Below, in pieces: positions 6,592 to 19,378 of a stretch of 32,969 nucleotides of DNA (positions are counted from its first letter, which is position 1; every line of letters starts with the position of its first letter). The notes beneath the pieces are model-generated. The model was not told the origin of the DNA. It was given only the letters and a program-made list of their open reading frames with translations, and made no database searches. Location of the stretch: the IMG/VR virus record IMGVR_UViG_3300006927_000036, positions 1 to 32,969 of that record. One strand, 5' to 3'. This DNA comes from a virus. The translations under genes and the position numbers were made by a program.

Positions 6592-6593
6592 GC
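6576..6593 (+). repeat. 18-base direct repeat, left copy
   Basis: GGTGGTAGGACAATGAGC spans the end of the helicase gene and the start of the next gene, including the ATGA overlap. An identical copy lies at 7457-7474, at the far end of the following gene. Confidence 0.9.
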
Positions 6594-7472
6594 TTACATA
6601 GGCATATCAAGGCTTACAACGCGGTCCTTAAAGCCATCAAGAAAGGGGTCTTGAATACGTGGAAAAGGTCGCGGTCTCCTTCTGCGGCCAAGAGAGAAAA
6701 GGCTGTCATGCGAGGCATGAGAACCCTGGCGCACACTCTACCAAGGGCGGCAAGATATTATTTTGAAGGCGCTGATTATGACGGGGACTTTGATTCTCTC
6801 AAGAAATCTCTTGGCGAAGGATTTGATATATTCAAATTGCCCAATAAGGCGGTGGTATATATTTCAGAAGATAAGAATACATCAGCTCATCGCGAAGGGG
6901 TGAGTATTGTCGGTCCATCCGAGGTGACAATTATTGCCGAGCAGATTGGCACTGGACGGATATCTGTTGTCATATTTCTTAGCGGGTTGGATGCGGATGG
7001 AGAAGATGCGTGTAACCTCGCTGCGCCAAAAGCAATCCTGACTAGGAATGAAGACCCAAGGAGAATTGATGTGGCGCTTGAGTCTGGATATAAGCTTTCT
7101 AGGGATATGGAAAATTATGTGCTGACTTGGTTTTCATACATGCAATATCTGCTGCACAAGGATCGAGCGATTGAAGAGATCGAGCGGTTCTATGATCTGG
7201 ATTATCAGGGTCAGGAAGCTGATGGCGTGACCAATATCTTTAGGACCGTCCGTATCCATGCTGACAAGCCTCGCGTCCGGTATACCGGTGAGAGCCAAGC
7301 TACTGGCAGGAAGAACCGATACCATGGAGTCAGGGGTCACTACGTTCACTACGATCATGAGATCAAGTCTGGGCCAAATCAGGGCAAGACCAAAGTATTT
7401 AGGGCCGCGCACAATCGCGGGGATCCGAGCAAGGGGCGCGTTTACAAAGACTATGAGGTGGTAGGACAATGA
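6588..7472 (+). CDS. Hypothetical protein in a repeat-bracketed cassette
   Basis: 294 residues, not recognised. The first 70 residues are basic and helical (KAYNAVLKAIKKGVLNTWKRSRS). The middle (75-200) is a mixed alpha/beta domain (KAVVYISEDKN, EVTIIAEQIGTGRISVVIFLSG). The C-terminal 60 residues are basic and aromatic (KNRYHGVRGHYVHYDHEIKSG), suggesting nucleic-acid contact. No catalytic motif is visible. Bases about 6740-7150 look more AT-rich than flanking genes. The gene is bounded by two identical 18-base repeats that carry the stop-start junction, so it looks like an inserted cassette within a replication operon. Start ATG 6588 overlaps the helicase stop; ribosome site TAGGA. Confidence 0.75.
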   Translation: MSLHRHIKAYNAVLKAIKKGVLNTWKRSRSPSAAKREKAVMRGMRTLAHTLPRAARYYFEGADYDGDFDSLKKSLGEGFDIFKLPNKAVVYISEDKNTSAHREGVSIVGPSEVTIIAEQIGTGRISVVIFLSGLDADGEDACNLAAPKAILTRNEDPRRIDVALESGYKLSRDMENYVLTWFSYMQYLLHKDRAIEEIERFYDLDYQGQEADGVTNIFRTVRIHADKPRVRYTGESQATGRKNRYHGVRGHYVHYDHEIKSGPNQGKTKVFRAAHNRGDPSKGRVYKDYEVVGQ

Positions 7473-7474
7473 GC
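7457..7474 (+). repeat. 18-base direct repeat, right copy
   Basis: Identical to 6576-6593. It ends this gene with the same VVGQ-stop and begins the next with the same MS start. Confidence 0.9.
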
Positions 7475-7732
7475 AGACGATGCACGGTAATGGACCGGAT
7501 CAAGTTTAAGCAACTACAAGCAACCGACAACCAGAGCTGGACAATCGGAGCCATGGTGAGGGATGCCTGGGTGCTAGAACACTCTGAGCTTCCTGACAAA
7601 GAGCTTCGGGGCAAGACCAAAGGCCCTGGGTCTCACTGTTTCGCGGTATACCCAGAATCTTTTGTGCCTACCATTGACGCGATTATCGACAAGTTCCGGT
7701 TGATGAGCGCCAGCCAGAAGGATCTGTTTTGA
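7469..7732 (+). CDS. Small hypothetical protein before ninB
   Basis: 87 residues, not recognised. It reads as a compact mixed fold (MDRIKFKQLQATDNQSWTIG, then HCFAVYPESFVPTIDAIIDKF). There are no metal sites or membrane segments. It overlaps the previous gene by ATGA and the next by TTGA, so it is part of the coupled replication and recombination operon. Its position between replication genes and ninB is typical of small accessory genes in nin-like regions. An internal ATG at codon 8 is a possible alternative start. Confidence 0.65.
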   Translation: MSRRCTVMDRIKFKQLQATDNQSWTIGAMVRDAWVLEHSELPDKELRGKTKGPGSHCFAVYPESFVPTIDAIIDKFRLMSASQKDLF

Positions 7733-8211
7733 CAAGCCAGAAGATAATCCTGCAGCCTAAGCGATCCAAGGATGATGTCGATCAGGCCATCAGGTCCGTT
7801 GTGCTGATGATGAGGTCACTACCAGATCATGTCGGCTGGATGGTGGAGATCACCAAGCCCAGGAAGGAAGCCAGCAATCAACAGCGGAAAGCCCTCTGGG
7901 GTTGTGCTTATAAATTCCTCCATGACGAGACAGGGAACGATCAGGATGACCTGCATCAGATGTTTTGTGGCGAGTTCTTCGGCTGGGAAGAGTATACTGT
8001 CCTGGGCCAGCGGAAGAAGAAGGCCATCAGGACGACAACCAAGGACGAGGAGGGTCATTCAGATCCTATCTCGGTAGATAGATTCATCGAGTTCTATGAT
8101 TTTGTGCAGCGCCACACGGCCCAGACGATTGGGTTAGTGGTCCCAGATCCAGACCCAAACTGGAAGACACGCATGATGGAAGAAGCGGATGCCAAGAAAA
8201 AAAAAGTGTGA
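7729..8211 (+). CDS. ninB: NinB-like recombination mediator
   Basis: 160 residues. The region KPRKEASNQQRKALWGCAYKF and then DDLHQMFCGEFFGWE is characteristic of NinB (lambda Orf), a DNA-binding recombination mediator that acts with RecA-like or Red-type pathways. DRFIEFYDFVQRHTAQTIGLVVPDPDP closes the family pattern. The start is TTG at 7729, overlapping the preceding stop as TTGA; no nearer ATG keeps the N-terminal strand. The 3' end reads KKKKV through a run of nine A that is shared with the start of ninG in another frame. NinB and ninG side by side, as in lambda's nin region, supports both calls. Confidence 0.85.
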   Translation: MTSQKIILQPKRSKDDVDQAIRSVVLMMRSLPDHVGWMVEITKPRKEASNQQRKALWGCAYKFLHDETGNDQDDLHQMFCGEFFGWEEYTVLGQRKKKAIRTTTKDEEGHSDPISVDRFIEFYDFVQRHTAQTIGLVVPDPDPNWKTRMMEEADAKKKKV

Positions 8212-8749
8212 GGTGTGTGGTGAGGAGTTTGAGAAGAAGCGCATGGGCCAGAGATGCCATGTTGATTGCGCGTATGAGCTGGTCATTCAGGACCGTAAGA
8301 AGCAGAAGTCTAAGGATGCCCGAAAGGCCAAGGCAGAATTCAACCAGCGGCAGCGAAGCTGGTGGTTCGGGTCCAACAACAAAGGATCTACCGCCTACTG
8401 GTTCAACAAGTACATCCGAGAACGTGATAGCGTTTCCACCCAGGCGTGTATTAGCTGCGATACCTCGAATCCGTCGAATCAATTCCATGCTGGCCACTAC
8501 AGGTCGGTTGGGGCCGCACCAGAGTTGCGCTTCCACCCAGACAACTGTCACAGACAATGCAGCCAGTGCAACACAATCAAGAGCGGCAACCAGACCGAGT
8601 ACAGAATCCGCCTGATCAGGAAGATAGGCCTGGATGCTGTAGAGGATCTCGAGTCAGCTCATCCACCCAGGAAATGGACTATCGAAGAACTGGAGAAGGA
8701 GCGGGACTGCTGGAAGGCGAAGTACCATGAGCTATGTGATGTGACATAA
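8189..8749 (+). CDS. ninG: NinG/Rap-like Holliday-junction endonuclease
   Basis: 186 residues, close to the usual NinG length. An N-terminal zinc ribbon (CEVCGEEFEKKRMGQRCHVDC, residues 7-27) is followed by a basic coil (DRKKQKSKDARKAKAEFNQRQR) and then the NinG core: CISCDT, HAGHYRSVGAAPELRFHPDN, CHRQCSQCN. These are the cysteines and histidines of the recombination nuclease that cuts branched DNA. ATG at 8189 lies inside the end of ninB, 23 bases before its stop. It is the last gene of the rightward early operon; convergent terminators are expected after it. Confidence 0.9.
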   Translation: MPRKKKCEVCGEEFEKKRMGQRCHVDCAYELVIQDRKKQKSKDARKAKAEFNQRQRSWWFGSNNKGSTAYWFNKYIRERDSVSTQACISCDTSNPSNQFHAGHYRSVGAAPELRFHPDNCHRQCSQCNTIKSGNQTEYRIRLIRKIGLDAVEDLESAHPPRKWTIEELEKERDCWKAKYHELCDVT

Positions 8750-8859
8750 CATAGATCCTCGATAACCCTCGATTCATTCTGGCTGGGGGCCGCATAGAGC
8801 GGGGCTTTGGGCTTGTAATCCTTGAAAATCCCCGATTGCCGCGCCTATCACACACTCAT

Positions 8860-8901
8860 TTGTGTCACAACATTTGTTTTGTGTCACAAGGCTTGTCACA
8901 A
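8860..8901. repeat. TTGTG-T-CACAA palindromes, probable operator cluster
   Basis: TTGTGTCACAA at 8860-8870 and again at 8879-8889, then a shortened TTGTCACAA at 8893-8901. Each full copy is a five-base inverted repeat around one base. They lie in the non-coding gap after ninG and differ from the TGTGAGTTCACA array at 18146-18260 only in the centre of the same TGTGA/TCACA half-site idea. Confidence 0.55.
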
Positions 8902-8904
8902 ACT

Positions 8905-9013
8905 ACACTCTGCTAAGCAGACGGTATTGACAATCTGCGGTCCTATCACATCTGGAGCAGGAAAAGCGGAAAAGAAATAGGCCTTTTTGTTTCCGGATTA
9001 TTCTCCAGGCAAG
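8905..9013. other. Intergenic stretch between convergent operons
   Basis: Non-coding remainder of the 8750-9184 gap. It holds a small hairpin TCTGC-TAA-GCAGA (about 8909-8921), with a third TCTGC downstream, and a TTGACA at 8927-8932 with no acceptable -10 box. No gene with a ribosome site is seen. Confidence 0.4.
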
Positions 9014-9039
9014 AAAAAACCCGCGCATCTCACGATGGG
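9014..9039 (-). terminator. Candidate terminator of the leftward operon
   Basis: Minus-strand reading: CCCATC, loop GTGA, GATG, then CGCGGG and six T. The stem has a three-base bulge before its last GGG. The U-tract and position, downstream of the last leftward gene, favour intrinsic termination. Confidence 0.5.
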
Positions 9040-9159
9040 CAGGCTTCTCGTTAACCTCAGTGGGGCGGGGTACAACCATTTACCCTCACCTTGTCAACTA
9101 CGGATGTTTTTCATATGCAGCCCACCGTCCGCTGGGACTGTCTGGCCTACTCCCCGAAA

Positions 9160-9182
9160 GGACCCCTGCCAGCAGGGTTTCC
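9160..9182. terminator. Stable hairpin just after the last leftward gene
   Basis: CCCTG-CCAG-CAGGG forms a five-base stem, extended past one mismatch by GGA/TCC. It begins three bases after the stop of the 9185-9430 gene on the minus strand and is followed there by TTTC only, so it may protect the 3' end or help termination rather than act alone. Confidence 0.35.
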
Positions 9183-9184
9183 GA

Positions 9185-9430
9185 CTATGGCCCCTCCTCG
9201 TGGATACTGGTGAGGCATTTTTCTTCCAGGCCCTTCACGGCGCATCTGCTGAGAAGCTCGATCACATCAACCTCATTGATCATGACGGCCTCGACAACGA
9301 CAGACTCGTGATAGCCTGGGTATTCAAGCGTAGGTTTCTCGTATGGCTGGTAGTCGAACAGGATCGTGACTGGCAGATCATCGCCCAGGCTGCTCACCAA
9401 TTCTCTACTTGTACTAACTTTCATGTCCAT
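9185..9430 (-). CDS. Small conserved phage protein, function unknown
   Basis: 81 residues. The pattern LPVTILFDYQPYEKPTLEYPGYHESVVVEAVMINEVDVIELL (shown here only in part: FDYQPYEKP, EYPGYHES, INEVDV) resembles short proteins found in many phage genomes, with a beta-strand, a Y-P-G-Y turn and a strand. No activity is known. ATG at 9430 follows GAGGTACAGGAAT. It is the last gene of the leftward operon that starts at 15729. A longer opposite-strand frame over the same region (8987-9457) is a shadow. Confidence 0.6.
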   Translation of the reverse strand: MDMKVSTSRELVSSLGDDLPVTILFDYQPYEKPTLEYPGYHESVVVEAVMINEVDVIELLSRCAVKGLEEKCLTSIHEEGP

Positions 9431-9467
9431 ATTCCTGTACCTCTGGCCCTATTATGACACATATTTC

Positions 9468-9483
9468 GGTTTCACATGAAACC
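9468..9483 (-). other. Perfect hairpin between two small genes
   Basis: GGTTTC-ATGT-GAAACC on the minus strand, in the 62-base gap after the 84-residue gene. It is followed by GAAA like stem II of a hammerhead, but the CUGANGA strand is missing. It may stabilise the mRNA. Confidence 0.4.
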
Positions 9484-9492
9484 CTGTCTTCC

Positions 9493-9747
9493 CTAATCAA
9501 TATTGACGCGCAAGGGTAGAACCTCGGCGGTCTGGAATCCTTCCAGGGTGAACCCCAATTCTCTCAGGATGGCGTAGACCTTGGTCAGGCCGTTGCAGTT
9601 GGCCGCACTCCAAGTGCTGCACCATCTCTCGATGACCTCATCATTGATGACCGCCTGGATACACCAGTCCTGGCCGTCCGGCGTTGTGTGGGCGATAAAG
9701 GACCCAACCCCTGGCTGAGATCCGCTGATGCCTGTCTGTACGTTCAT
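9493..9747 (-). CDS. Small hypothetical protein
   Basis: 84 residues from the ATG at 9747, which overlaps the preceding stop as ATGA and follows GAGGAGAAGTC. An upstream in-frame start at 9789 would lie inside the neighbouring gene and has no ribosome site. The sequence (GVGSFIAHTTPDGQDWCIQAVINDEVIERW) looks like a small beta-rich fold with a helical C-terminus. Not recognised. It belongs to the three-gene tail of the leftward operon, downstream of the ribozyme at 9986-10043. Confidence 0.6.
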   Translation of the reverse strand: MNVQTGISGSQPGVGSFIAHTTPDGQDWCIQAVINDEVIERWCSTWSAANCNGLTKVYAILRELGFTLEGFQTAEVLPLRVNID

Positions 9748-9959
9748 GACTTCTCCTCGGGGTACTCGAGGTTCAGCAGCCACTCGCAAAGCGCGTAGCG
9801 GTCCTCGTCCGTTGCCGGAGTGAAGATGTAGCCGTGAGGCAGTTCGCCCAGGACCTTGATCCCAGGTTCCCCGCCAGTGATTACCAGGGACGATGTCCTG
9901 GCCTCATCCCCAGCATCTCCTGGGGCCGCTCCGGTGAGCGTGATGTAATGGTTTGCCAT
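9744..9959 (-). CDS. Small hypothetical protein
   Basis: 71 residues, not recognised. It begins MANHYITLTGAAPGD and ends in an acidic helix (DEDRYALCEWLLNLEYPEEKS). ATG at 9959 follows AACTAGGAGTTTTATT, a good ribosome site. It is the first gene downstream of the hammerhead element at 9986-10043. After cleavage its message would start at 9990, about 30 bases before the start codon, leaving the ribosome site intact. Confidence 0.6.
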   Translation of the reverse strand: MANHYITLTGAAPGDAGDEARTSSLVITGGEPGIKVLGELPHGYIFTPATDEDRYALCEWLLNLEYPEEKS

Positions 9960-9985
9960 AATAAAACTCCTAGTTAAGTTGGTTT

Positions 9986-10043
9986 GCCTATAACGCCCCG
10001 AAGGGCGTTTTCACTGGGGAACCGCCCCAGATCATCAGTAGGC
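9986..10043 (-). ncRNA. Hammerhead ribozyme, type I (element A), overlapping a stop codon
   Basis: Minus-strand fold, 5' to 3': stem I GCCUA (10043-10039); core CUGAUGA (10038-10032); U; stem II CUGGGG-CGGUU-CCCCAG; U; core GAA (10012-10010); stem III AACGCCC-UUCG-GGGCGUU (10009-9992), whose first pair is A15.1-U16.1; A17 at 9991; stem I' UAGGC (9990-9986). Predicted cleavage follows 9991. The upstream gene's TGA is the UGA inside CUGAUGA, so coding and catalytic sequence overlap. The odd point is a U.U pair where most hammerheads have G-C next to the core in stem II. Confidence 0.8.
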
Positions 10044-11504
10044 CTCGACTTCGATCACCTCCCCGAATCGGTCAGCTTCTCGTTGGAACCTGGGAGCTAC
10101 TGCAGTGGTCACCCAGATCACAGGATACTCTGGCTCTTCGACTGTCACATATCCGTACCCGTCAGTGAAGTAGATCAGCGCATCCGGCTGGATGTCCTCG
10201 GCTTCGCAGTACTCAAACACTGGATCGAATCGAGTGCCGCCGCCGCCGTGCAGTACCAGCTCCACCTCTTCACCGCGCTCGAATACATCGACATGCTGTA
10301 CAACCGCATCACAGTAAATCACAGTGGTCTGGCTTGGCTGGATCGTGTCTATTAACTCGTTAATATGACCGGCTATCGTCTCCAACTCATCCTGGCCCAG
10401 GCTGCAGCTAGTATCGATACTCAGTACCAGCTCCCCGTTGGGCTGCTGATCAGGCCCAGGTAGGATCAGGCCAGAGTGCAGGAACCTACGGTTAGGCCTA
10501 GCGAATGTGGAATCGTAAGAGATCATGTCAGAAAAATATTCCTGCAGGATCTCATTCCAGGGCAGTGGCTGCTCCAGCTTGTCTTCGAGAACACCGAGGA
10601 CGTTGCCAGCACCTTTGCCCATTGCCTTCTCGGCCTGATGGGCCTGGAAGACCTGGGCAGCGATTTCGCGCTCTTCAGTCTCGATCTCGGAAGGGGTCAG
10701 CGGCTCACCATCGTCATTGACGGCATCCCAGATCTCGCCAGGAGCAGAGCCTTCGCCTGGGGAACCGGCAGGAGCTTCGCCCTCGCCTTCACCTTCGGCC
10801 TCGCCTAATCCGTTGCCAGAATCATCGTCACCCTGGTCACCAGATCCGGCTGAATCACCGGCATCATCACCATCATCACCCTGGCCATCATCACCAGATC
10901 CAGACTCGGAATCACCCTGGTCATCACCCTGGTCACCCTCATCGCCGGCCTGGGACTCAGAACCCTCTTCAGAATCACCCTCATCCTCGCCCTGGTCATC
11001 CTGGGGAGCGTTCTCGCCTTCGGAGGTATCATCACCCTCTTCATCCGAATCGCTCTCCTGTGGCTCCTGAGAGTCATCTGAAGGATCTTCCTGGGGCCTG
11101 TTACCAAAGATGATCGTGTGGATCTTCTCGGCACTCAGGCCCTTGTATGCCTGATCCAGCAAAGCACCCTGGGGGAGCTGAAAAAGCTGGTAGGCATCGA
11201 TGATCAGGTTGGCCGCAAAATCACAGGAGACGTTCCATTCTTTGGGGTCTCTGGTTCCTCGGCGGGTATGGTGACACAGGATTACATGGCATACCTCATG
11301 GGCGAAAACTGTGAACAGCTCCACGATTGAGATGGCCAGGACAAAATCCACGTTGTAAAAAACGCAGGTCCCGTCTGTGGCCATTGTCTCAGTCAGTGTA
11401 GACTCTTCCAGGCGGAGACTCAGTGCCTTGTGGGCAAAGAACGGAGCGACTCGGATGAGCCGCTTCCTGGCCTGGGTTACCTTAGCAAGTGCTTCGGCGC
11501 TCAT
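10035..11504 (-). CDS. Metallopeptidase-like plus VWA domain protein (DUF2201 type)
   Basis: 489 residues in three parts. The N-terminus (1-135) has the zinc-peptidase motif HEVCH at 69-73, in FTVFAHEVCHVILCHHTRRG, then a helical region. A strongly acidic, repetitive linker (about 137-270, rich in D, E, G, S and Q) follows. The C-terminus (about 350-489) is a VWA-like domain with the metal-site motif DTSCS and later FTDGYGY. This is the arrangement of DUF2201 proteins, which pair with a MoxR-like AAA+ ATPase; that ATPase is encoded at 12467-13522. The pair probably acts as a chaperone-like or remodelling module on an unknown target. The start overlaps the upstream stop (TAATG). Its stop codon lies inside a hammerhead ribozyme. 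Confidence 0.82.
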   Translation of the reverse strand: MSAEALAKVTQARKRLIRVAPFFAHKALSLRLEESTLTETMATDGTCVFYNVDFVLAISIVELFTVFAHEVCHVILCHHTRRGTRDPKEWNVSCDFAANLIIDAYQLFQLPQGALLDQAYKGLSAEKIHTIIFGNRPQEDPSDDSQEPQESDSDEEGDDTSEGENAPQDDQGEDEGDSEEGSESQAGDEGDQGDDQGDSESGSGDDGQGDDGDDAGDSAGSGDQGDDDSGNGLGEAEGEGEGEAPAGSPGEGSAPGEIWDAVNDDGEPLTPSEIETEEREIAAQVFQAHQAEKAMGKGAGNVLGVLEDKLEQPLPWNEILQEYFSDMISYDSTFARPNRRFLHSGLILPGPDQQPNGELVLSIDTSCSLGQDELETIAGHINELIDTIQPSQTTVIYCDAVVQHVDVFERGEEVELVLHGGGGTRFDPVFEYCEAEDIQPDALIYFTDGYGYVTVEEPEYPVIWVTTAVAPRFQREADRFGEVIEVEAY

Positions 11505-12376
11505 TAGTACAGGCCCTCCAGGCTTGACGCGATGGTCTTGGCCTTTGCGATAGTATCCTTCCTGTAGGACTCATTGGTCTTGAGTGCTTCAGGCTTGAGG
11601 TCACCCAACTGGGCCACGATCTCATCAGTGGCCTGGGCCAGTGCAGGATCGCCGGTCACATTCAGAGCTGGGAGAATGTCTACCAGATCCGTCAGGTTGG
11701 TTACCAGGGTAGGAGCAAAATTCCCAGTAGCCTTGCCGGTCTTCGCATCTACCGTGTACCCACTGAGCTTCTCGATCAGCGCCCCGAGCTTGTCTGTCAG
11801 GCGCTTGTGGATTCGAGTGGTGCTTTCCTTGATTCCGGCAGTCACCTGATCATCAACACTGTTGACAATCTTATCGATCTTGGACTGGGGCAGATCCACT
11901 CGGATGTCACCGCTATCTGGCAGATGGCAGTATTTAACCTCAATGCCGTACTTGGCAATGATCTGGTCAGTAGTCGGGTAGTCCGCTGGATTGTGAGCGG
12001 TCCCGAGCAGGTCAGCAGAGTTTGCCACTGCAATCGGGTAGCTGGTCTTCAGGTCATGAAGCAGCGTATCCCAGTCAAGCACGGCCTGGGCCAGCTCATC
12101 TTCAAATCGATCCAGCAGCTCTACCGTGATCAACCGTTGGCCATGATCGCCCCAGGGGACGGTCAAATGATCCACGATGTTGTTTCGGATATGGCCCTGG
12201 AGGGTCTTGAGTTGCTTGACCTCCGCACAGTCCACCAGATCCTTAGTGACTCCAATGGTCCCTTTCTTGGCCTTGGTCTGCTTGTTGACCTTGGCAGTCA
12301 ATCGCTTGTCGAGCTTGCGATTTCTCCAGTAGTGGAGGGTGACGCTAACCAGCAACGCCTGTTCTTGAATCCTCAT
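11504..12376 (-). CDS. DUF3150-like protein of the AAA+/VWA module
   Basis: 290 residues, mostly helical. The opening SVTLHYWRNRKLDKRLTAKVNKQTKAKKGTIGVTKDL pattern (seen as LDKRLTAKV, KAKKGTIG) and the later alternation of amphipathic helices resemble DUF3150 proteins, which occur next to MoxR-type ATPases and VWA proteins in phages and plasmids. No enzyme motif is seen. ATG at 12376 follows CGGAGAACGACATT. Its stop overlaps the VWA start by one base, so the two are coupled, and both lie between ribozymes B and A on one cleaved RNA. It is probably an adaptor of the AAA+/VWA complex. The family match is moderate. Confidence 0.7.
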   Translation of the reverse strand: MRIQEQALLVSVTLHYWRNRKLDKRLTAKVNKQTKAKKGTIGVTKDLVDCAEVKQLKTLQGHIRNNIVDHLTVPWGDHGQRLITVELLDRFEDELAQAVLDWDTLLHDLKTSYPIAVANSADLLGTAHNPADYPTTDQIIAKYGIEVKYCHLPDSGDIRVDLPQSKIDKIVNSVDDQVTAGIKESTTRIHKRLTDKLGALIEKLSGYTVDAKTGKATGNFAPTLVTNLTDLVDILPALNVTGDPALAQATDEIVAQLGDLKPEALKTNESYRKDTIAKAKTIASSLEGLY

Positions 12377-12385
12377 AATGTCGTT

Positions 12386-12399
12386 CTCCGTATCAGTTT
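12386..12399 (-). promoter_or_regulatory. Conserved leader with ribosome site downstream of ribozyme B
   Basis: AAACTGATACGGAG. Near copies occur at 13533-13546 (AAACTGACTAGGAG) and 14690-14703 (AAACTGATTAGGAG). Each lies downstream of a ribozyme and just before a start codon. Confidence 0.6.
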
Positions 12400-12407
12400 A
12401 AGTGGTT

Positions 12408-12465
12408 ATCCTATAGCCCCTCTCGGGGCTTTCACTGGGTCACCATCCCAGATCGTCAGTAGGAC
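12408..12465 (-). ncRNA. Hammerhead ribozyme, type I (element B)
   Basis: Minus-strand fold: stem I GUCCUA (12465-12460); core CUGACGA (12459-12453); U; stem II CUGGG-AUGGUGA-CCCAG; U; core GAA (12433-12431); stem III AGCCCC-GAGA-GGGGCU (12430-12415), with A15.1-U16.1 first; A17 at 12414; stem I' UAGGAU (12413-12408, last pair G.U). Cleavage is predicted after 12414. Compared with element A, the variable core base is C rather than U, the fifth stem I pair is U-A rather than G-C, and stem III has a GAGA instead of a UUCG loop. It starts one base after the AAA+ stop codon. Confidence 0.8.
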
Positions 12466-12466
12466 G

Positions 12467-13522
12467 TTAGCCCACATAGCCCTCCTTGTTGGCGATCTTG
12501 TGATCGATGTAGGCCTGGGTCTCCTTCAACTCAGGGTCACGGGCAGTCGCTGTAAGCACTGTGAGCATGGTAAACTCTGAGCTGATGCGATCCAGAAACC
12601 GGATGACGGCCCCCAGGTTCTCCCTGGTAGCTTTCCTGGCAAACAAAGCGGCCAGGGCGTACTGGGTATCAGGAGCCGAAGGTATTGGCGCGTTATCAGG
12701 ATCTGACAGGATACCGGCAACATCTGGGAGGTTGCGGATGATCTTGATGAACCCGATAAGCTGGGCAGATATACCGAATCCCAGGCAACCCTGGAGGGCG
12801 GCATGTTCCAGATCTATCGGCAGGCCCAGCTTCAGGATATCGCTTGCAGCCTCATAGGAACGGGGGCTACCGAATCCGATGACCCCTTTTTCCTTGCCCA
12901 GGCCGTTGGGGTATTCATGGATCAGTTCGGGACAGAAACCCAGGAAAGCGATGACCTCGGCCAGGACCCCGTGAGGCGCGGCCCAGGCAGTCCAGACGAC
13001 AACATCACAGATGATGTTGAAGTGAGTGGCGAATCGATTGCTGACCGCCGTATTGAAGTTACTGGTCAGGCCAGCCTTGTCTTCGGGCCTGTTGCTGGCC
13101 GCTACGACAACCCAGCCCTCGGGCAGAACATAGTCACCCAGGCATCGATCATGGAGCAGTTGATACGCTCCGGCCAGGGTGGAAGGGGATGCCAGGAACA
13201 GCTCATCCAGAAACAGAATCCCCCTGGGGCCGTCTCGCTCGACGTTGGGGAGCCAGGATGGCGTATTCCAAGTGGTGATGCCGTTCTCGATTGATGGCAC
13301 ACCGCGCAGATCCACTGCGTCCATCTGGCTCAATCGGGCATCGATGAAGCCCCAGGGCTGACCCTGGATCTCTTCGAGTCGGGCTGGTACTGCAGCGATA
13401 CCGGCAGACTTACCAACGCCTGGAGGTCCCCAAAGCGTTACCGGCTTCGTATTGCCTGCAGCCCACCATGAAGTCAGAAACTCCGTGGCTTGGCCCAGGT
13501 TAATTTGTGGAAGGTTCATCAT
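12467..13522 (-). CDS. MoxR-like AAA+ ATPase
   Basis: 351 residues from the ATG at 13522, behind AGGAGAACG; an upstream in-frame ATG at 13567 lacks a ribosome site and would run into the leader. Walker A is GPPGVGKS at 32-39; Walker B is ILFLDE near 102-107; a sensor-1-like VVVAASNRPED follows. The helical C-terminal part (about 210-345) contains IGFGSPRSYEAASDIL, with the sensor-2-like arginine. This is the MoxR type, which works with VWA partners; a VWA protein is encoded two genes downstream. Ribozymes D and B flank the gene, so its message would be released as a single-gene RNA. The substrate is unknown. Confidence 0.88.
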   Translation of the reverse strand: MMNLPQINLGQATEFLTSWWAAGNTKPVTLWGPPGVGKSAGIAAVPARLEEIQGQPWGFIDARLSQMDAVDLRGVPSIENGITTWNTPSWLPNVERDGPRGILFLDELFLASPSTLAGAYQLLHDRCLGDYVLPEGWVVVAASNRPEDKAGLTSNFNTAVSNRFATHFNIICDVVVWTAWAAPHGVLAEVIAFLGFCPELIHEYPNGLGKEKGVIGFGSPRSYEAASDILKLGLPIDLEHAALQGCLGFGISAQLIGFIKIIRNLPDVAGILSDPDNAPIPSAPDTQYALAALFARKATRENLGAVIRFLDRISSEFTMLTVLTATARDPELKETQAYIDHKIANKEGYVG

Positions 13523-13566
13523 AATTGTCGTTCTCCTAGTCAGTTTCGGTTCGTATTGACGCATCA

Positions 13567-13595
13567 TCGCATAATTATACTGCGAAAGATACTTC
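13567..13595 (-). promoter_or_regulatory. Possible internal promoter upstream of the AAA+ gene
   Basis: Minus strand: GAAGTATCTTTCGC (13595-13582), AG, TATAAT (13579-13574), inside a CGCA/TGCG inverted repeat. A perfect -10 box is present but no -35 box is at the right distance. A near-identical GAAGGATCTTTCGC lies before the first gene of this operon (15789-15776). Confidence 0.4.
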
Positions 13596-13599
13596 TTTA

Positions 13600-13651
13600 G
13601 CTGTTTCGGCCTGGGGGCCTCATCAGGAGAGGTGCATCACCTCTCGACAGC
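13600..13651 (-). ncRNA. Hammerhead ribozyme, type III (element D)
   Basis: Minus-strand fold: stem III GCUGU (13651-13647); C17 at 13646; stem I GAGAGGUG-AUG-CACCUCUC (13645-13627); core CUGAUGA (13626-13620); stem II GGCC-CCCA-GGCC (13619-13608); core GAA (13607-13605); stem III' ACAGC (13604-13600), giving A15.1-U16.1. The cleavage triplet is GUC, with cleavage after 13646. Here stem III is the open end, so this is a circular permutation of elements A, B and C. Every core position matches the consensus, including G10.1-C11.1. Confidence 0.88.
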
Positions 13652-13665
13652 GGGGCCGAAGCCCC
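13652..13665 (-). other. UUCG-capped hairpin abutting ribozyme D
   Basis: GGGGC-UUCG-GCCCC on the minus strand, directly 5' of stem III of ribozyme D and six bases after the stop codon. After cleavage it would be the 3' end structure of the PAPS-2 message and could block 3' exonucleases. There is no U-tract, so it is not a simple terminator. Confidence 0.65.
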
Positions 13666-13671
13666 TGGGAC

Positions 13672-14682
13672 CTAGCAGGTCCTCGCATCTTGTGCGTTGC
13701 CGCCTGTGGCTTCCTTGGCCTCTCGCGGCTCGGTAGCCTTCCTGAGAAGCTCGGTGCGGTTGCCAATGAACTTGCCGTCACGATCCACGATCCCTTCGAT
13801 CCTGGCCCACTGGTTCCAGGCAAAGGATCTGCCCAGGCCAACGCAGGTATTCAGGCTGGGGTACTCATCGTAATCGCTGACCAGATCTTCCCAGGTGATC
13901 CAGTCAACATCGTCTGCGAATCGACTGTGGTGACCAGTCAATGCACCGCGCTCAAGCTGCAGGGCATTCAGGAACAGATGGGGGTGAGTGCCTGCTAACC
14001 AGAACAGCTCCCATTTTTGCGACGCTGGGCAGTAATAACATGCGGATTTCACAGGCACTGGCAGTCCCGCCTCAGTGATTGCTGCAACGCACTCAGCCCT
14101 GGCCCAGCCCACACTCTGCAGCGGATAGTTGAAAATGAAGTCATTGTCTTCACCCTTGAGTTTCTTGGATCGCCTGATGTCAGCACGGCCAGCATCGTAT
14201 CCAATGATCTTGATGATCTTGAGGCCGGTCTCCTGATACTCGGCCCAGAGAGGATGGACTGGGATCGGGTTGTGCGGAGCCTTGCAGCCCTTCAGAAAAT
14301 AGTCCTGGGGGATTTGCTTCCACTTGATGCTGCAGGATTTCTTGCCGAAGGCCAGGGAAGGCAGAGTCTCGTTATCGTGGCAGTTCCCAGTCAGGTCTTC
14401 ATAGCTGGTGGAAGGCAAGGTGACCTTGGCGCAGACAGTGATCTGGGGCCAGCCAATCGAGGCGTACCATTCGTTCAGAATATGCCGGTGTGCCAGTGTC
14501 TCAGGCTTCTCACCTCCTGTATCGGCAAAGGTGATGACATCAGGCCGGATGCCCTCACTGTGCAGCAGGACAGATACAGCGGTGGAATCGACTCCCAGGC
14601 CGTTGCACAGGTTGATCTTGTGGCCTTTGGCTACCAGGGCCTTGAGGTCTTGCAGTCTATCGGATGTAATCAGTTGCCTCAT
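13672..14682 (-). CDS. PAPS-reductase/PP-loop ATP pyrophosphatase-like protein 2
   Basis: 336 residues. The N-terminal Rossmann-like PP-loop reads CNGLGVDSTAV (26-36), a variant of SGGxDS; then FADTGGEKPET and SCSIKWKQIPQDYF with a conserved-looking Cys-Lys pair. CYYCPASQKW near 220 carries a CxxC and resembles DndC/CysH-like proteins, which activate substrates with ATP and may bind a metal cluster. Family members act in sulfate reduction, thionucleoside chemistry or DNA phosphorothioation, but no other dnd gene is present here. ATG at 14682 follows TAGGAGTACGAAA. It lies between ribozymes C and D, and its paralogue is immediately upstream. The real substrate is unknown. Confidence 0.82.
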   Translation of the reverse strand: MRQLITSDRLQDLKALVAKGHKINLCNGLGVDSTAVSVLLHSEGIRPDVITFADTGGEKPETLAHRHILNEWYASIGWPQITVCAKVTLPSTSYEDLTGNCHDNETLPSLAFGKKSCSIKWKQIPQDYFLKGCKAPHNPIPVHPLWAEYQETGLKIIKIIGYDAGRADIRRSKKLKGEDNDFIFNYPLQSVGWARAECVAAITEAGLPVPVKSACYYCPASQKWELFWLAGTHPHLFLNALQLERGALTGHHSRFADDVDWITWEDLVSDYDEYPSLNTCVGLGRSFAWNQWARIEGIVDRDGKFIGNRTELLRKATEPREAKEATGGNAQDARTC

Positions 14683-14689
14683 TTTCGTA

Positions 14690-14703
14690 CTCCTAATCAG
14701 TTT
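14690..14703 (-). promoter_or_regulatory. Conserved leader with ribosome site downstream of ribozyme C
   Basis: AAACTGATTAGGAG, matching the leaders at 12386 and 13533 at 12-13 of 14 positions. It supplies the ribosome-binding site of the PAPS-2 gene. Confidence 0.6.
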
Positions 14704-14712
14704 ATGTTAATT

Positions 14713-14767
14713 GTCTAAGACCCCCAGGTCTCGGGGGTTTCGGCCATTCAGGCCTCATCAGTCAGAC
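14713..14767 (-). ncRNA. Hammerhead ribozyme, type I (element C)
   Basis: Minus-strand fold: stem I GUCUGA (14767-14762); core CUGAUGA (14761-14755); stem II GGCC-UGAAU-GGCC (14754-14742); core GAA (14741-14739); stem III ACCCCC-GAGACCU-GGGGGU (14738-14720), with A15.1-U16.1; C17 at 14719; stem I' UUAGAC (14718-14713). The cleavage triplet is GUC and all core positions fit the consensus. Stem I has six pairs including one G.U. Its first base is the last base of the PAPS-1 stop codon. This is the most canonical of the four. Confidence 0.92.
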
Positions 14768-15729
14768 TATGCGGTCCAGTCACCAGCCTCATCGATATCC
14801 AGGGCTTCGCAGATGACTCGATCAGTGTACTGCCATTTCACCTCTTCCCTGGTGAATGCCCTGACCTCGGCCTCGGTGAAGAACTGGACCTGCTCAGTGT
14901 CCAGGCCTTCCCTGTGGGTTACCGTAACAGTGAACTGGCTGCTCCTGGCGATGATCGATTCCTTGGCGAATACTGAGTACCCAGTCTTCTCCTCCAGGGC
15001 AACGTACTTGGCGAACAGCTCGGGACGATACTTGCGGCCCCTGGCGATATCACCCTTAGATCCGAACACGCAGAACACGCAGCTCAGGCGGTCATTCCCT
15101 TCAGCGTAGGCCCAGAAAGGCTTCTCATCGTAATCAGCGATGCACTGGAACACCTCATCAGTTGACCAGTCGAAGATGGGATACCAGTCATAAACCGTGC
15201 GGCTGGCGATGGAGAGCCGGTCATTCTGCTGAAACGGGACCTTCTTGGCCCTGGCAGATGACTCTTCAGCCCTGATTCCACATACATTGACGGCGAGGGT
15301 CTTGCCCCTGGCCTTGAGGTCATTGCGGATGAACTTCTCAATCGGGCCGCGCTTCAGATCTGAAGTGCAGTATCGGGCTGCGCTGCTGGGCCAGGAGGGA
15401 GCTTCGGGCCTTGTGTCGAATCGCTTCTCAACAAGATTGAGCAGGGTCTTTTCAGATCCATCCTTGTAAATCGCACTTACTACATTGAGGGGATGGAGGA
15501 TGGTGTTTCGGATATGGTCCTTCACCCCAGTCCACTCGACTTCACCCAGGTCAGCGTGGACAACCACGATCTGGCTTGTAGGGATATGGAGGCCACTGGA
15601 TAGGTAGAGGTAGGTTGCCTGGGAATCTTTGCCCCCAGAATGAGAGACATAGAAAATGGCTCCCTGGTTGGCGAGGTCCCAAATCTGGGCTTCAATCTTA
15701 CGGTCTGTAATCTCTTGTAGCTTAGTCAT
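14767..15729 (-). CDS. PAPS-reductase/PP-loop ATP pyrophosphatase-like protein 1
   Basis: 320 residues from ATG 15729, behind AAGGAGAACGACAG; an in-frame start at 15798 would overlap the promoter. The PP-loop SGGKDS sits at 31-36 (VSHSGGKDSQATY), followed by VVVHADLGEVEW and CTSDLKRGPIEKFI, a CxxDLK pattern typical of CysH/PAPS-reductase relatives. RAEESSARAK and later CVFCVFGSK (a CxxC) complete the family picture. It is the first gene of the leftward operon and keeps a canonical PP-loop, unlike its neighbour. ATP-dependent activation of a sulfur-containing or nucleic-acid substrate is the family expectation; the substrate is unknown. Confidence 0.85.
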   Translation of the reverse strand: MTKLQEITDRKIEAQIWDLANQGAIFYVSHSGGKDSQATYLYLSSGLHIPTSQIVVVHADLGEVEWTGVKDHIRNTILHPLNVVSAIYKDGSEKTLLNLVEKRFDTRPEAPSWPSSAARYCTSDLKRGPIEKFIRNDLKARGKTLAVNVCGIRAEESSARAKKVPFQQNDRLSIASRTVYDWYPIFDWSTDEVFQCIADYDEKPFWAYAEGNDRLSCVFCVFGSKGDIARGRKYRPELFAKYVALEEKTGYSVFAKESIIARSSQFTVTVTHREGLDTEQVQFFTEAEVRAFTREEVKWQYTDRVICEALDIDEAGDWTA

Positions 15730-15769
15730 TCTGTCGTTCTCCTTGGCTTGCGTGTGTTCGGAATGCCGA

Positions 15770-15798
15770 ACATTAGCGAAAGATCCTTCGTATTGCAA
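15770..15798 (-). promoter_or_regulatory. Candidate leftward promoter of the PAPS/AAA+/VWA operon
   Basis: Minus strand: TTGCAA (15798-15793), 17 bases, TAATGT (15775-15770), about 40 bases upstream of the first start codon. The boxes are weak, but the spacer holds the shared element GAAGGATCTTTCGC. Confidence 0.4.
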
Positions 15799-15885
15799 CC
15801 CCCTATTTCCGAATTAGGCCCAGATAAGTAGTGAAAAGGTGACTGGGACCAGCTAAAATGCGGGTTGTAGAGGAGAAAATATATT

Positions 15886-16320
15886 TTGTCTGACACTGTA
15901 AAAATGACCAGATTTGCCCATTTTCCGGACCGTGTTCTGGGAAAGTGGCAATTTCAGGACCGGATCTGGTACTCAATCGAGCGGCCCTGGCTCGACAATA
16001 TGGCCAACGTCTCCTGTATCCCAGGTGCGTCATACTCCATGATTCGCGTAGACAGCCCTAGATTCGGGGCTGACAGCGCATACCAGGGCCAACTCTGGGA
16101 AGTGGCCGAGGTCCCAGGCCGGAGTGCGATCCTGATCCACATAGCGAACTGGGCCAAGGACCTGCAGGGCTGTATCGGCCTGGGGTCCAGCTTAATGGCG
16201 GATCTGGCCGGAGTAGGGCATTCGCGGACATCCATCACTGATTTCTACGCACTGACCAAAGACATTCAACACCTGACCCTGGACATCGCAACAGGCCCAC
16301 TACTAGAGGTCAAGCGGTGA
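15886..16320 (+). CDS. DUF5675-like protein, probably in the lysis module
   Basis: 144 residues. ERPWLDNMANVSCIPGASYSM, DSPRFGADSAYQGQLWEV and IHIANWAKDLQGCIGLGSSL follow the conserved pattern of DUF5675 (E-R-P-W, S-C-I-P-x-G-x-Y, H-x2-N-x4-D-x2-G-C-I-x-L-G). The conserved His and Cys suggest a cell-wall-active or cysteine-dependent enzyme, but that is not established. The start is TTG at 15886 behind AGAGGAGAAAATATAT; an ATG at 15904 has no ribosome site. It overlaps the holin-like gene by four bases, which favours a lysis role. Confidence 0.75.
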   Translation: MSDTVKMTRFAHFPDRVLGKWQFQDRIWYSIERPWLDNMANVSCIPGASYSMIRVDSPRFGADSAYQGQLWEVAEVPGRSAILIHIANWAKDLQGCIGLGSSLMADLAGVGHSRTSITDFYALTKDIQHLTLDIATGPLLEVKR

Positions 16321-16877
16321 AGTTCCTGAAACGGCTACTGCCCTTTGCCAGCCTAGCCCTGGGAGCAACTCCACTCGCACCGCTCATACCAGTTATCAAC
16401 GCCATTTTGCCGGATGGTCAAGACCTGACCCCAGCTAACACCGGCCAGCAGGCAATCGATCTCATATCCAGGCAGTCAACCGAGGTCCAGGCCAAGCTGG
16501 ATGCGGAGTTGGGGCTAGAACAGGAACACACCGAGCAGCTCCGGATCTTGGCTGAGATGGACGGGCCTGGGAGCAGCACGAGACCGATGATCGCCAGGGT
16601 CTGCATCTACACGATGTCATCAGTCACCCTAATCACTGTGAGTGCCATTTTTATTGCCCTGTGGACCGAAGGGCTTGAACATGCCAGCGGAGTTCTGCAG
16701 CTCGGCCTGGGTATCGCGTCAATGCTGTCAATATTCAGTGTGCCAGTGAACAAATATATTGGAGTGCGATCGTCCGAGAAGGCAATGAGAATGGCGGTTG
16801 CAGCCGGAGGCACACCAGATCAGATCCCAGGTTTTGGCGGGATCATCGCTTCTCTACTTGGAGGCCGAAAGCCATGA
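16317..16877 (+). CDS. 3-TM holin-like membrane protein
   Basis: 186 residues. A hydrophobic N-terminus (LLPFASLALGATPLAPLIPVI), a helical region (about 45-85), then two membrane segments in the C-terminal half (CIYTMSSVTLITVSAIFIALW and VLQLGLGIASMLSIFSVPV), with RPMIAR before them. This layout resembles the 3-TM holin family also found in gene-transfer agents. It sits between the DUF5675-like gene and the small terminase, overlapping both by four bases. It would permeabilise the inner membrane for lysis. The final GFGGIIASLLGGRKP is glycine rich. Confidence 0.72.
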   Translation: MKFLKRLLPFASLALGATPLAPLIPVINAILPDGQDLTPANTGQQAIDLISRQSTEVQAKLDAELGLEQEHTEQLRILAEMDGPGSSTRPMIARVCIYTMSSVTLITVSAIFIALWTEGLEHASGVLQLGLGIASMLSIFSVPVNKYIGVRSSEKAMRMAVAAGGTPDQIPGFGGIIASLLGGRKP

Positions 16878-17617
16878 CAACCAAGCAACCAGCCGGATTG
16901 AGTAAAGAGGCCCAGGCATACTGGCCCACTATCATCGATCTCCTTGAAGGCCAGGATATACTTGACTCTCCCCCAGTCCTACTGGCCTATTGCGAGAACT
17001 TTGCCCAATGGAAGTACAACCTCCAGAAAGTGGTGGAACTGGGTCCAGTAGTCCGAAACGGTACAAAGCTCTCAGAAAGCCCGTATCAGGCCGCTGCAGA
17101 CCGTTTACAGCGTCTTATGGCCGGAATGCTCACCAAACCCCAGGAAACCATTGAACCTCCTCCTGTAGACCTAGACTCTGATCAGGACCTTAACAAGTTC
17201 CAAAGAGCTTTCATCAGAGAGTGGGTCGTATCCAACAATGGCACACAAGCCGCTATTAAAGCAGGGTACAGCGAAAAGTCAGCAGCAAGCCAAGCCTCCG
17301 CACTGCTTAAGAACCCGAAGATAAAAAGACATATCTGGGCGTTGGAGCGTGAGATTTCCCGAGCAGCAGGCATAACGGTGGAGCTTGTCAGCACCGGATT
17401 GCTTGTAGAAGCCCGTGGAGAGGGGCCTGACACCAATTCGAGTGCCAGGACATCAGCGTGGCAGCTCCTGGCGAAGCTAGGCGGTCTCTTTAAAGAGGAC
17501 AATGCCCAGCAGGCCCATTCAGCAAGGGTTCTGGACAATATGGACCCAACGGCCCTCATGGCCCTCGAGCAGCAGCTTCAGGCTGAGAGCCAGGAACGGC
17601 GCGACTCTCAGCATTAA
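16874..17617 (+). CDS. Terminase small subunit with two family domains
   Basis: 247 residues. The N-terminal part (about 8-85: LSKEAQAYWPTIIDLLEG, YCENFAQWKYNLQKVVELG, SPYQAAADRLQRLMAG) reads like the P27 type of small terminase. The second part (about 104-200: FQRAFIREWVVSNNGTQAAI, GYSEKSAASQASALLKNPKI) reads like the Terminase_2/XtmA type with its helix-turn-helix. The two usually occur as separate proteins. It should recognise packaging sites and regulate the large subunit at 21429-23015. It overlaps the holin gene by ATGA. The large subunit is unusually far, 3.8 kb downstream. Confidence 0.82.
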   Translation: MTTKQPAGLSKEAQAYWPTIIDLLEGQDILDSPPVLLAYCENFAQWKYNLQKVVELGPVVRNGTKLSESPYQAAADRLQRLMAGMLTKPQETIEPPPVDLDSDQDLNKFQRAFIREWVVSNNGTQAAIKAGYSEKSAASQASALLKNPKIKRHIWALEREISRAAGITVELVSTGLLVEARGEGPDTNSSARTSAWQLLAKLGGLFKEDNAQQAHSARVLDNMDPTALMALEQQLQAESQERRDSQH

Positions 17618-18145
17618 TGACGGCTTCCCTCCTCTTCGAGGCCGTAGCAGTCCTTGACCCAGGTAACACTGGGTTGGGGCAACCTCCCCGTATTCATTGG
17701 CCTCCAGGGTAAGTAGGTGCTGGGGGATAGAGAGTGCGTGTAATAAACATTATGTTAAATAGGCAGCTAAGTCATTGATTCTATTGGGATCAACACCTGA
17801 CCCCAGGCTAGATCCACCAGATCCAAGGCCCCATTCACGGGGATGATAGTGGTGATTGACGGCTCATTGACGCATCAATAGGAGGTCTCGTGCATCACGA
17901 TAAAGGTTGCGGATCGGCTAGAGGCCACTATTTATGTGCAGGTGTGAAACTTTCTTTTCCCCTGGAGGCCGCATTCTATGGCTTTCGGACCCCCCCCGAC
18001 CCCCCTTTTACAGGCCGCGCCGCGCCTTGTTCAATTCTTATAGGATGCCCGTCTCAATTTTCACAAAATTTTCCAAGTAATTGTGTGATGTGCTTTACCC
18101 AGAGCTGCTGGGCTGTGTAGGGGATTGTGTTGAGCAGCATTGGTA
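17618..18145 (+). other. Mostly non-coding region after the small terminase gene
   Basis: About 530 bases without a well-supported gene. It holds two strong hairpins near 17658-17690 (ACCCAG/CTGGGT, then GGTTG/CAACC), an AT-rich stretch near 17745-17765, and C-runs of eight and six bases near 17990-18005. By position, next to the small terminase gene, it could contain the packaging site; nothing in it proves that. Confidence 0.5.
17890..18120 (+). CDS. Doubtful 76-codon ORF
   Basis: GTG at 17890 lies behind a good AGGAGG, eight bases upstream. The peptide, however, is rich in Pro, Cys and Phe (RTPPDPPFTGRAAP, NCVMCFTQSCWAV) and crosses the C-runs, unlike the neighbouring genes. It overlaps no other gene. 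Equally it may be a chance frame in a regulatory region. Confidence 0.25.
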   Translation: MHHDKGCGSARGHYLCAGVKLSFPLEAAFYGFRTPPDPPFTGRAAPCSILIGCPSQFSQNFPSNCVMCFTQSCWAV

Positions 18146-18260
18146 TGTGAGTTCACATATCCTGATGTGAGTTCACAAAAGGGGGTTGTGAGTTCACAAA
18201 TGGGTTGAATGTGAGTTCACAGGGGTATATTGTGGTTTGTGAGTTCACAGTGAGTTCACA
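18146..18260. repeat. Six-copy TGTGAGTTCACA palindrome array
   Basis: Copies start at 18146, 18166, 18187, 18210, 18238 and 18249; five are identical and the sixth has A for its first base and shares a base with the fifth. Each is TGTGA-GT-TCACA. The first steps are 20, 21 and 23 bases, close to two helical turns, so bound proteins would line up on one face. The array ends four bases before the next gene's start codon. Confidence 0.9.
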
Positions 18261-18263
18261 GAG

Positions 18264-18590: not shown

Positions 18591-18672
18591 TATTATTGCG
18601 GAGTTGGTTTATGAAATATGCCGTGTTGAGGCGGAGTTGTCTGGCAGGCCCACACTAACGGAGGAGCTATGA
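18583..18672 (+). CDS. 29-residue coupled small gene
   Basis: Start ATG 18583 lies inside the end of the previous gene and its TGA overlaps the next ATG as ATGA. The peptide (MSDIIAELVYEICRVEAELS plus GRPTLTEEL) is an amphipathic acidic helix. Overlap at both ends with correct phasing is the evidence for translation. Function unknown. Confidence 0.6.
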   Translation: MSDIIAELVYEICRVEAELSGRPTLTEEL

Positions 18673-19295: not shown

Positions 19296-19378
19296 TTGAG
19301 ACAATAATGCTAGCGGTGGTGAGTTTCATTATCGGGTGTTGGGTGGGATATAACATAGGCCGTGACGCTGATGCCTGA
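19292..19378 (+). CDS. 28-residue single-pass membrane peptide
   Basis: ATG 19292 overlaps the previous stop as ATGA. The peptide has one hydrophobic span (TIMLAVVSFIIGCWVGYNIG) and a short acidic end. It is followed by another overlapping start at 19371. Too short for similarity; supported by coupling only. Confidence 0.5.
   Translation: MIETIMLAVVSFIIGCWVGYNIGRDADA

What the first reader, a model, noticed from the sequence alone, without database searches (positions are those of the whole stretch)
9986..14767. Four hammerhead ribozymes at the intercistronic gaps of one phage operon
On the minus strand, four gaps of the 9185-15729 leftward operon each fold as a complete hammerhead: 14713-14767, 13600-13651, 12408-12465 and 9986-10043. 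All have CUGANGA, GAA, A15.1-U16.1 and H17. The order PAPS-1, C, PAPS-2, D, AAA+, B, DUF3150-VWA, A, small genes means that self-cleavage would cut one long RNA into five messages with different ends and decay rates. Hammerheads are known in phages, but a chain separating the genes of one operon is unusual. Basis: strands, pairs and core read directly; activity and purpose inferred.
Basis: partly seen in the sequence, partly recalled or inferred. Interest (0 to 1): 0.95.

Follow-up and report, generated by a model that had tools for sequence, protein, structure and literature searches.

The report
Four self-cutting RNAs punctuate phage operon
Four small self-cutting RNAs (hammerhead ribozymes) sit exactly between the genes of one bacteriophage operon and probably chop its long messenger into five shorter ones; such clusters were already known in phages, but two of the four belong to a recurrent variant that the standard RNA library misses.

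Summary
A hammerhead descriptor finds exactly four copies in the window, at the stated coordinates, all on the minus strand (1 chance hit in 100 shuffles). Three are type I and one is type III. Covariance models built only from other phages recover the three type I copies with E of 1e-15 to 1e-19; Rfam's type III model recovers the fourth with E=1e-5. All four minimum-energy folds are hammerheads. Self-cleavage itself is inferred.

The idea is not new. Perreault et al. 2011 (PMC3088659) described clusters of hammerheads flanking genes in prophages, proposed that they cut polycistronic RNA, and showed that a triple array cuts in E. coli. I also found chains of 3-5 in at least nine other phage contigs, so a chain is not unusual.

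What seems new: (1) copies 3 and 4 belong to a recurrent sub-class with a U10.1·U11.1 mismatch coupled to A17 and often a covarying loop II/3'-tail pseudoknot; (2) type I copies sit between stop codon and Shine-Dalgarno in 33 of 44 cases (0.7% expected), and in 10 the stop codon is U4-G5-A6 of the catalytic core; (3) in this operon every cut leaves a 3' hairpin. Likely function: translation-sensitive punctuation of a polycistronic mRNA.

The parts
14713..14767 (-). Hammerhead 1, type I, G10.1-C11.1, C17; predicted cut between 14719 and 14718
   Evidence: (E=7.7e-16 with a model from other phages); last base of the upstream stop codon (14769-14767) is the first base of stem I
13600..13651 (-). 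Hammerhead 2, type III, G-C, C17; predicted cut between 13646 and 13645
   Evidence: (RF00008 E=1e-5)
13652..13665 (-). GGGGC-UUCG-GCCCC hairpin flush with stem III of hammerhead 2; becomes the 3' end of the upstream RNA after the cut
   Evidence: 5 G-C pairs; on its own 19% of shuffles do as well; flush hairpins recur in 5 of 9 type III copies
12408..12465 (-). Hammerhead 3, type I, U10.1.U11.1 mismatch, A17; predicted cut between 12414 and 12413
   Evidence: (E=1.3e-19); starts just after the stop codon of the AAA+ gene (12469-12467)
9986..10043 (-). Hammerhead 4, type I, U10.1.U11.1 mismatch, A17; predicted cut between 9991 and 9990; stop codon UGA of the VWA gene (10037-10035) is U4-G5-A6 of the catalytic core
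   Evidence: (E=1e-15)
14767..15729 (-). PAPS-1: PAPS reductase-family protein, 320 aa
   Evidence: PF01507 E=5e-7; phrog_424
13672..14682 (-). PAPS-2: PAPS reductase-like protein, 336 aa; start 36 nt after cut 1
   Evidence: phrog_424 E=6.5e-13
12467..13522 (-). MoxR-type AAA+ ATPase, 351 aa; start 123 nt after cut 2
   Evidence: PF07728, phrog_1297 E=1e-67
11504..12376 (-). protein of unknown family, 290 aa; start 37 nt after cut 3; overlaps the next gene by its stop/start
   Evidence: no family hit
10035..11504 (-). DUF2201 metallopeptidase-like and VWA-like protein, 489 aa
   Evidence: PF13203 E=3e-41, PF09967 E=2e-19
9744..9959 (-). small gene, 71 aa; start 31 nt after cut 4
9493..9744 (-). 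small gene, 83 aa
9185..9430 (-). small gene, 81 aa, last gene of the operon
9096..9178 (-). Proteo-phage-1-like RNA at the operon end
   Evidence: RF03044 34.6 bits, below gathering 42; homologue in relative L014 passes with 43.0

Best explanation
The four elements are hammerhead ribozymes that act in cis as intercistronic punctuation of one leftward phage operon. As the polymerase passes each gap, the RNA folds into the three-stem hammerhead and cuts itself after H17. The single transcript is split into five units: PAPS-1; PAPS-2 (14718-13646); AAA+ ATPase (13645-12414); the 290-aa protein plus VWA protein (12413-9991); and the small genes with the Proteo-phage-1 RNA (9990 onward). Each upstream unit ends in a stable hairpin with a 2',3'-cyclic phosphate: stem III in the type I copies, a separate GGGGC-UUCG-GCCCC hairpin before the type III cut. 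Each downstream unit starts with a 5' hydroxyl 31-37 nt (type I) or 123 nt (type III) before its start codon. Because the upstream stop codon touches stem I or lies inside the core in the type I copies, a terminating ribosome should cover the ribozyme, so cutting is probably slowed while the upstream gene is translated. Shown: structures, positions, conservation as a class and recurrence of the stop-ribozyme-SD order. Inferred: cleavage, coupling to translation, altered stability of the pieces.
For: Four complete hammerheads against 0.01 expected. Out-of-sample covariance models find three of them at E 1e-15 to 1e-19 and Rfam finds the fourth at 1e-5. Stem covariation in the U.U/A17 class: 12 of 15 pairs with changes on both sides, 97% of cells paired (the sequences had passed a pairing filter). 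Among 44 distinct type I copies in phage contigs 33 lie between a stop codon and an SD-preceded start, against 0.7% of random positions. No terminator-like site lies in any of the four gaps, so readthrough into them is expected. Tandem prophage hammerheads cleave in vitro and a triple array cleaves in E. coli (PMC3088659). The U10.1-U11.1 mismatch supports more activity than any other mispair (PMC3088659).
Against: No activity data for these RNAs and no RNA-seq. No independent copy of this operon exists in the collections: the only close match is the same virus (window 6470-19522 is 100% identical to IMGVR_UViG_3300010151_000015), and relative L014 (79% identical primase) has other genes there and no hammerhead. 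G10.1, usually a metal ligand near the cleavage site, is absent in copies 3 and 4, so these may be slow. The 3'-hairpin rule fails in 3 of 9 type III copies elsewhere.
Confidence: 0.8

Rival explanations
1. The ribozymes are active but make circular or spliced RNAs: 2',3'-cyclic phosphate and 5'-OH ends of neighbouring cuts are joined by an RtcB-type ligase, giving gene-length circles.
For: Two cuts flank each of PAPS-2, AAA+ and the 290-aa/VWA pair, giving the right ends; hammerhead-flanked RNAs circularise in plant retrozymes (general knowledge).
Against: Perreault et al. looked for spliced or circular products of clustered phage hammerheads and found none (PMC3088659). The SD and start lie directly after each cut, which fits linear mRNA.
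Confidence: 0.07
2. Selfish or neutral modules: type I hammerhead plus SD cassettes that spread between phage intergenic gaps by recombination and persist without a benefit to the operon.
For: Copies 3 and 4 share stem II; related phage L012 has the same module between other genes; L018 alternates two nearly identical copies.
Against: Core bases and stems are kept while loops and stem sequences change; position relative to stop and start codons is precise; three architectures occupy the same kind of site.
Confidence: 0.12
3. Mainly structural 3'-end or attenuator elements: the stable hairpins act as RNA-decay barriers and the catalytic core is slow or inactive in the cell.
For: Every gap has a G+C-rich hairpin; copies 3 and 4 have a non-standard 10.1/11.1 pair.
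Against: The complete catalytic core and H17 are kept in all four and across 36 copies; a barrier hairpin would not need CUGANGA...GAA; the U.U mismatch is known to allow cleavage.
Confidence: 0.08
4. Chance hammerhead-like folds in G+C-rich gaps.
For: The motif is short and hairpins are common in gaps.
Against: 1 hit in 100 shuffled windows against 4 observed, all on one strand and in gaps of one operon; out-of-sample model E-values of 1e-15 to 1e-19.
Confidence: 0.005

Closest known systems
Clustered hammerhead ribozymes of prophages (Perreault et al. 2011, PMC3088659; e.g. the Agrobacterium tumefaciens triple array around ardA)
   Same: Several hammerheads of mixed types on one strand flank single genes or short gene blocks in phage DNA; proposed to cut polycistronic RNA into gene-length pieces; tandem arrays cleave in vitro and one in E. 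coli.
   Different: Different genes (PAPS reductase-like, MoxR, VWA); four in one operon; two of the four carry the U10.1.U11.1/A17 combination; stop codon inside the core in one.
Rfam RF00008 Hammerhead_3
   Same: 13600-13651 matches over the full model (40.9 bits, E=1e-5).
   Different: Below the curated 48.5-bit threshold; the three type I copies match no Rfam hammerhead model at E<=1.
Hammerheads with a U10.1-U11.1 mismatch (PMC3088659, Figure 5)
   Same: Same mismatch at the first pair of stem II, reported as a rare natural variant; the mismatch was earlier shown to be the best tolerated mispair there.
   Different: Here it is a recurrent class in many phages, in type I and type III, and goes with A17; I found no text describing that coupling (only this paper mentions U10.1).
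Bacterial hammerhead, twister and related ribozymes enriched near one another and near Mu-like phage genes (PMC10085705 and references in it)
   Same: Clustering of self-cleaving ribozymes in phage context.
   Different: No mechanism had been settled; the stop codon-ribozyme-SD order is quantified here.

Membership tests
Hammerhead ribozyme | Core C3 U4 G5 A6 N7 G8 A9 / G12 A13 A14 / A15.1-U16.1 / H17 | tested here: met
   All four copies
Hammerhead ribozyme | Three stems around the core | tested here: met
   Stems of 5-8, 4-6 and 5-7 bp; MFE fold is the hammerhead for all four
Hammerhead ribozyme | Paired 10.1-11.1 next to the core | tested here: inconclusive
   G-C in copies 1 and 2; U.U mismatch in 3 and 4, a known tolerated variant
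Hammerhead ribozyme | Homology by covariance model | tested here: met
   RF00008 for copy 2 (E=1e-5, below gathering); models from other phages for 1, 3, 4
Hammerhead ribozyme | Tertiary contact between stems I and II | tested here: inconclusive
   Copies 3 and 4: loop II UGGU/GGUU can pair with 3' tail ACCA/AACC; loop-tail match in the U.U class better than permuted tails, p=0.0006, n=22; not evident for copy 1
Hammerhead ribozyme | Self-cleavage after H17 giving 5'-OH and 2',3'-cyclic phosphate | not testable with these tools
   needs in vitro transcription
Clustered phage hammerheads (Perreault type) | Two or more hammerheads on one strand, close together, flanking genes or gene blocks in phage DNA | tested here: met
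   Four in 4.8 kb of one operon in a virus record with terminase and portal genes
Clustered phage hammerheads (Perreault type) | Polycistronic RNA is cut in the cell | not testable with these tools
   shown for the A. tumefaciens array in E. coli (PMC3088659), not here
Rfam RF00163 Hammerhead_1 (type I) | Score above the gathering cut-off | tested here: not met
   No RF00163 match in the window at E<=1; none in the 56-kb record of the same virus. The model also misses canonical type I copies in L018, so this reflects the model

The most novel reading that the evidence does not exclude
Phages carry a distinct hammerhead sub-class, U10.1.U11.1 with A17, in both type I and type III form and often with a loop II/3'-tail pseudoknot, in which the usual G10.1 metal ligand is lost and the cleavage-site base is changed with it. 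It is used as translation-sensitive punctuation: the upstream stop codon abuts or is built into the catalytic core, so the cut comes only after the last ribosome leaves.
Probability: 0.35. Interest if true: 0.75.

Novelty: new variant of a known kind. Interest (0 to 1): 0.55.

Why it matters
What hammerhead ribozymes do in bacteria and phages is still listed as an open question (PMC6155905). This operon and its relatives give a specific, testable answer: ribozymes placed between stop codon and ribosome-binding site, with exact predicted ends. The coupling of U10.1·U11.1 to A17 is a natural experiment on a much-studied catalytic core and would let databases find many copies that Rfam now misses.

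Tried and rejected
DNA similarity of the operon to deposited phages: none. The AAA+ protein and PAPS-2 searches in IMG/VR returned only the same virus, so orthologous gaps could not be compared. Phage records with related PAPS or primase proteins (L004-L006, L014, L015) have no hammerhead near those genes. blastn with single hammerheads against phages gave only chance-level matches. A U·U pattern search of bacterial genomes gave none and a wider one gave four loci that fail the descriptor. Weak promoter and terminator predictions are at shuffle level and were used only to note that no terminator-like site lies in the four gaps. A mixed alignment of both type I classes misaligned stem III and was not used for a model. 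The U·U/A17 coupling could be an artefact of my search pattern, so seeds that fixed both features were left out and a pattern free at both sites was run: U·U/A17 9 (window copy 3 included), U·U/C17 0, G-C/A17 2, G-C/C17 7, p=0.002. Copies share ancestry, so this p-value is optimistic.

Full report
OBSERVATION. The window is a phage (virus record G000, 32,969 bases) with terminase and portal/connector genes. The leftward operon 15729-9185 holds PAPS-1, PAPS-2, a MoxR-type AAA+ ATPase, a 290-aa protein of no known family, a DUF2201/VWA protein and three small genes, then a Proteo-phage-1-like RNA. The minimum-energy fold of each is the hammerhead.

INDEPENDENT CONFIRMATION. Rfam finds only the type III copy, below its curated threshold, and none of the type I copies. 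I therefore built two covariance models from type I hammerheads of other phages, without any window sequence (R1 from A5, the U·U class; R2 from A6, the canonical class). R1 ranks 12409-12464 (67.7 bits, E=1.3e-19) and 9986-10043 (55.8 bits, E=1e-15) first; R2 ranks 14713-14767 first (52.6 bits, E=7.7e-16). In the 56-kb record of the same virus no further copy appears, so the ribozymes are confined to this one operon.

ANATOMY. Copy 1 (type I) starts on the last base of the PAPS-1 stop codon. Copy 2 (type III) follows the PAPS-2 stop codon after a GGGGC-UUCG-GCCCC hairpin flush with stem III. Copy 3 (type I) starts one base after the AAA+ stop codon. In copy 4 (type I) the VWA stop codon UGA is U4-G5-A6 of the invariant core. 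After each type I cut 31-37 nt remain before the next start codon, with a Shine-Dalgarno sequence; after the type III cut 123 nt. The 290-aa gene and the VWA gene overlap at their stop and start codons and have no gap and no ribozyme. Every upstream RNA would end in a G+C-rich hairpin. No terminator-like site lies in the gaps.

COMPARISON. Pattern scans of IMG/VR brought in unrelated phage contigs that carry hammerheads. Chains are common there: five type I copies in 1.5 kb in L018, the last cut by the contig end; four in 5.4 kb in L071, three in L078 and in the L074/L075 contig; three in L073 plus a weaker fourth candidate in its source locus L058; four in L079, three in L081 and L090; four type III and one type I in L092; three in L097. 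Related phage L012 (primase 56% identical) carries a type I copy of the same sub-class between other genes, and a type II-like copy elsewhere on the same strand whose stem I loop GGCCU can pair with the tail AGGCC (read by eye; partial model match). L014, a nearer relative (primase 79%), has other genes in this place and none. So the module moves independently of the genes it separates. This sample was chosen for having hammerheads and says nothing about how common they are.

POSITION. Over 44 distinct type I copies, 36 have an upstream stop codon within -9 to +13 of the first stem I base and 40 have an SD-preceded start 20-60 nt after the cut; 33 have both, against 0.7% of random positions on the same strands. 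In 10 of the 44 the stop codon is U4-G5-A6 of the core. This argues for a function tied to cistron boundaries and predicts that a terminating ribosome masks the ribozyme (inference from the usual ribosome footprint).

SUB-CLASS. With a descriptor free at 10.1/11.1 and at 17, 36 distinct copies gave G-C/C17 nine times, U·U/A17 25 times, one U·U/U17 (L026, doubtful) and one G·U/A17; 20 shuffles of all loci gave three hits in total. Seeds had been chosen for both features; leaving them out, G-C went with C17 in 9 of 9 and U·U with A17 in 11 of 12. A final scan free at both sites gave U·U/A17 9 (window copy 3 included), U·U/C17 0, G-C/A17 2, G-C/C17 7 (Fisher p=0.002). Type III copies with U·U and A17 occur too (L071, L073, L074, L078, L092). 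In the pseudoknot-bearing members loop II and the 3' tail change together: GGUU/AACC, UGGU/ACCA, GGAU/AUCC, AGGU/ACCU, GGG/CCC (p=0.0006 against permuted tails, 22 copies that are not all independent). A further recurrent form has an extra U after A9 with a normal G-C pair and C17 (L081, L082, L090, L092, L094). G10.1 N7 is a known metal site near the scissile phosphate (general knowledge), so loss of G10.1 together with a change at 17 is worth a kinetic test.

WHAT IS KNOWN. Perreault et al. 2011 reported clustered hammerheads flanking genes or gene blocks in prophages, proposed processing of long phage transcripts, showed cleavage of three tandem arrangements in vitro and of one triple array in E. 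coli, found no circular or spliced products, and listed a natural U10.1-U11.1 mismatch (PMC3088659). Later work notes enrichment of self-cleaving ribozymes near each other and near Mu-like phage genes (PMC10085705). A 2017 review calls their prokaryotic role open (PMC6155905). The chain in this window is therefore a further and rather long case of a known arrangement. I found no text on the U·U/A17 coupling or on stop codons inside the core, but subscription papers and supplements were not searchable.

VERDICT. Real, well-formed hammerheads that most likely punctuate one polycistronic RNA. The arrangement is a new member of a known kind; the sub-class of copies 3 and 4 is a new variant of a known kind. 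Activity, coupling to translation and effect on gene expression remain untested.

Noticed in passing
window 9096-9178 (-): Proteo-phage-1-like RNA (RF03044, 34.6 bits, below gathering 42) right after the last small gene; the homologue in relative L014 (10531-10616) scores 43.0 and passes.
   Followed up: partly
window 13672-15729 (-): Two different PAPS reductase-like genes in a row; PAPS-1 weakly resembles BrxP, SspD and DndC of DNA-modification defence systems, PAPS-2 weakly SspD.
   Followed up: partly
window 6470-19522: Identical to part of IMGVR_UViG_3300010151_000015 (56,285 bases), evidently the same virus in a longer assembly.
   Followed up: yes
L012 about 6260-6325 (-): Type II-like hammerhead with an extra U after A9 and a possible loop I/tail pseudoknot (GGCCU/AGGCC), missed by my descriptor and by Rfam.
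   Followed up: partly
L081:15650-15706, L082:16630-16686, L090:5162-5219, L092:3974-4027, L094:833-887: Recurrent hammerhead form with an inserted U between A9 and a G-C first pair of stem II, with C17; possibly a step between the canonical and U.U/A17 forms.
   Followed up: partly
L071:7034, L073:1063, L075:2687, L077:2425, L078:13794: In related AT-rich phages the type I cut is followed at once by a second hairpin with compensatory changes (GCUAGC/GCUAGC, GCUAAC/GUUAGC, GUCAG/CUGAC), so the downstream RNA would start with a 5' hairpin.
   Followed up: no
L071:1700 and L074:11249: 15-16 bp hairpins flush with the type III hammerhead, with nearly identical sequence (GGGUUGAAUAUUGACCAGUCAAUAUUUGACCC) although one hammerhead is G-C/C17 and the other U.U/A17.
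   Followed up: no
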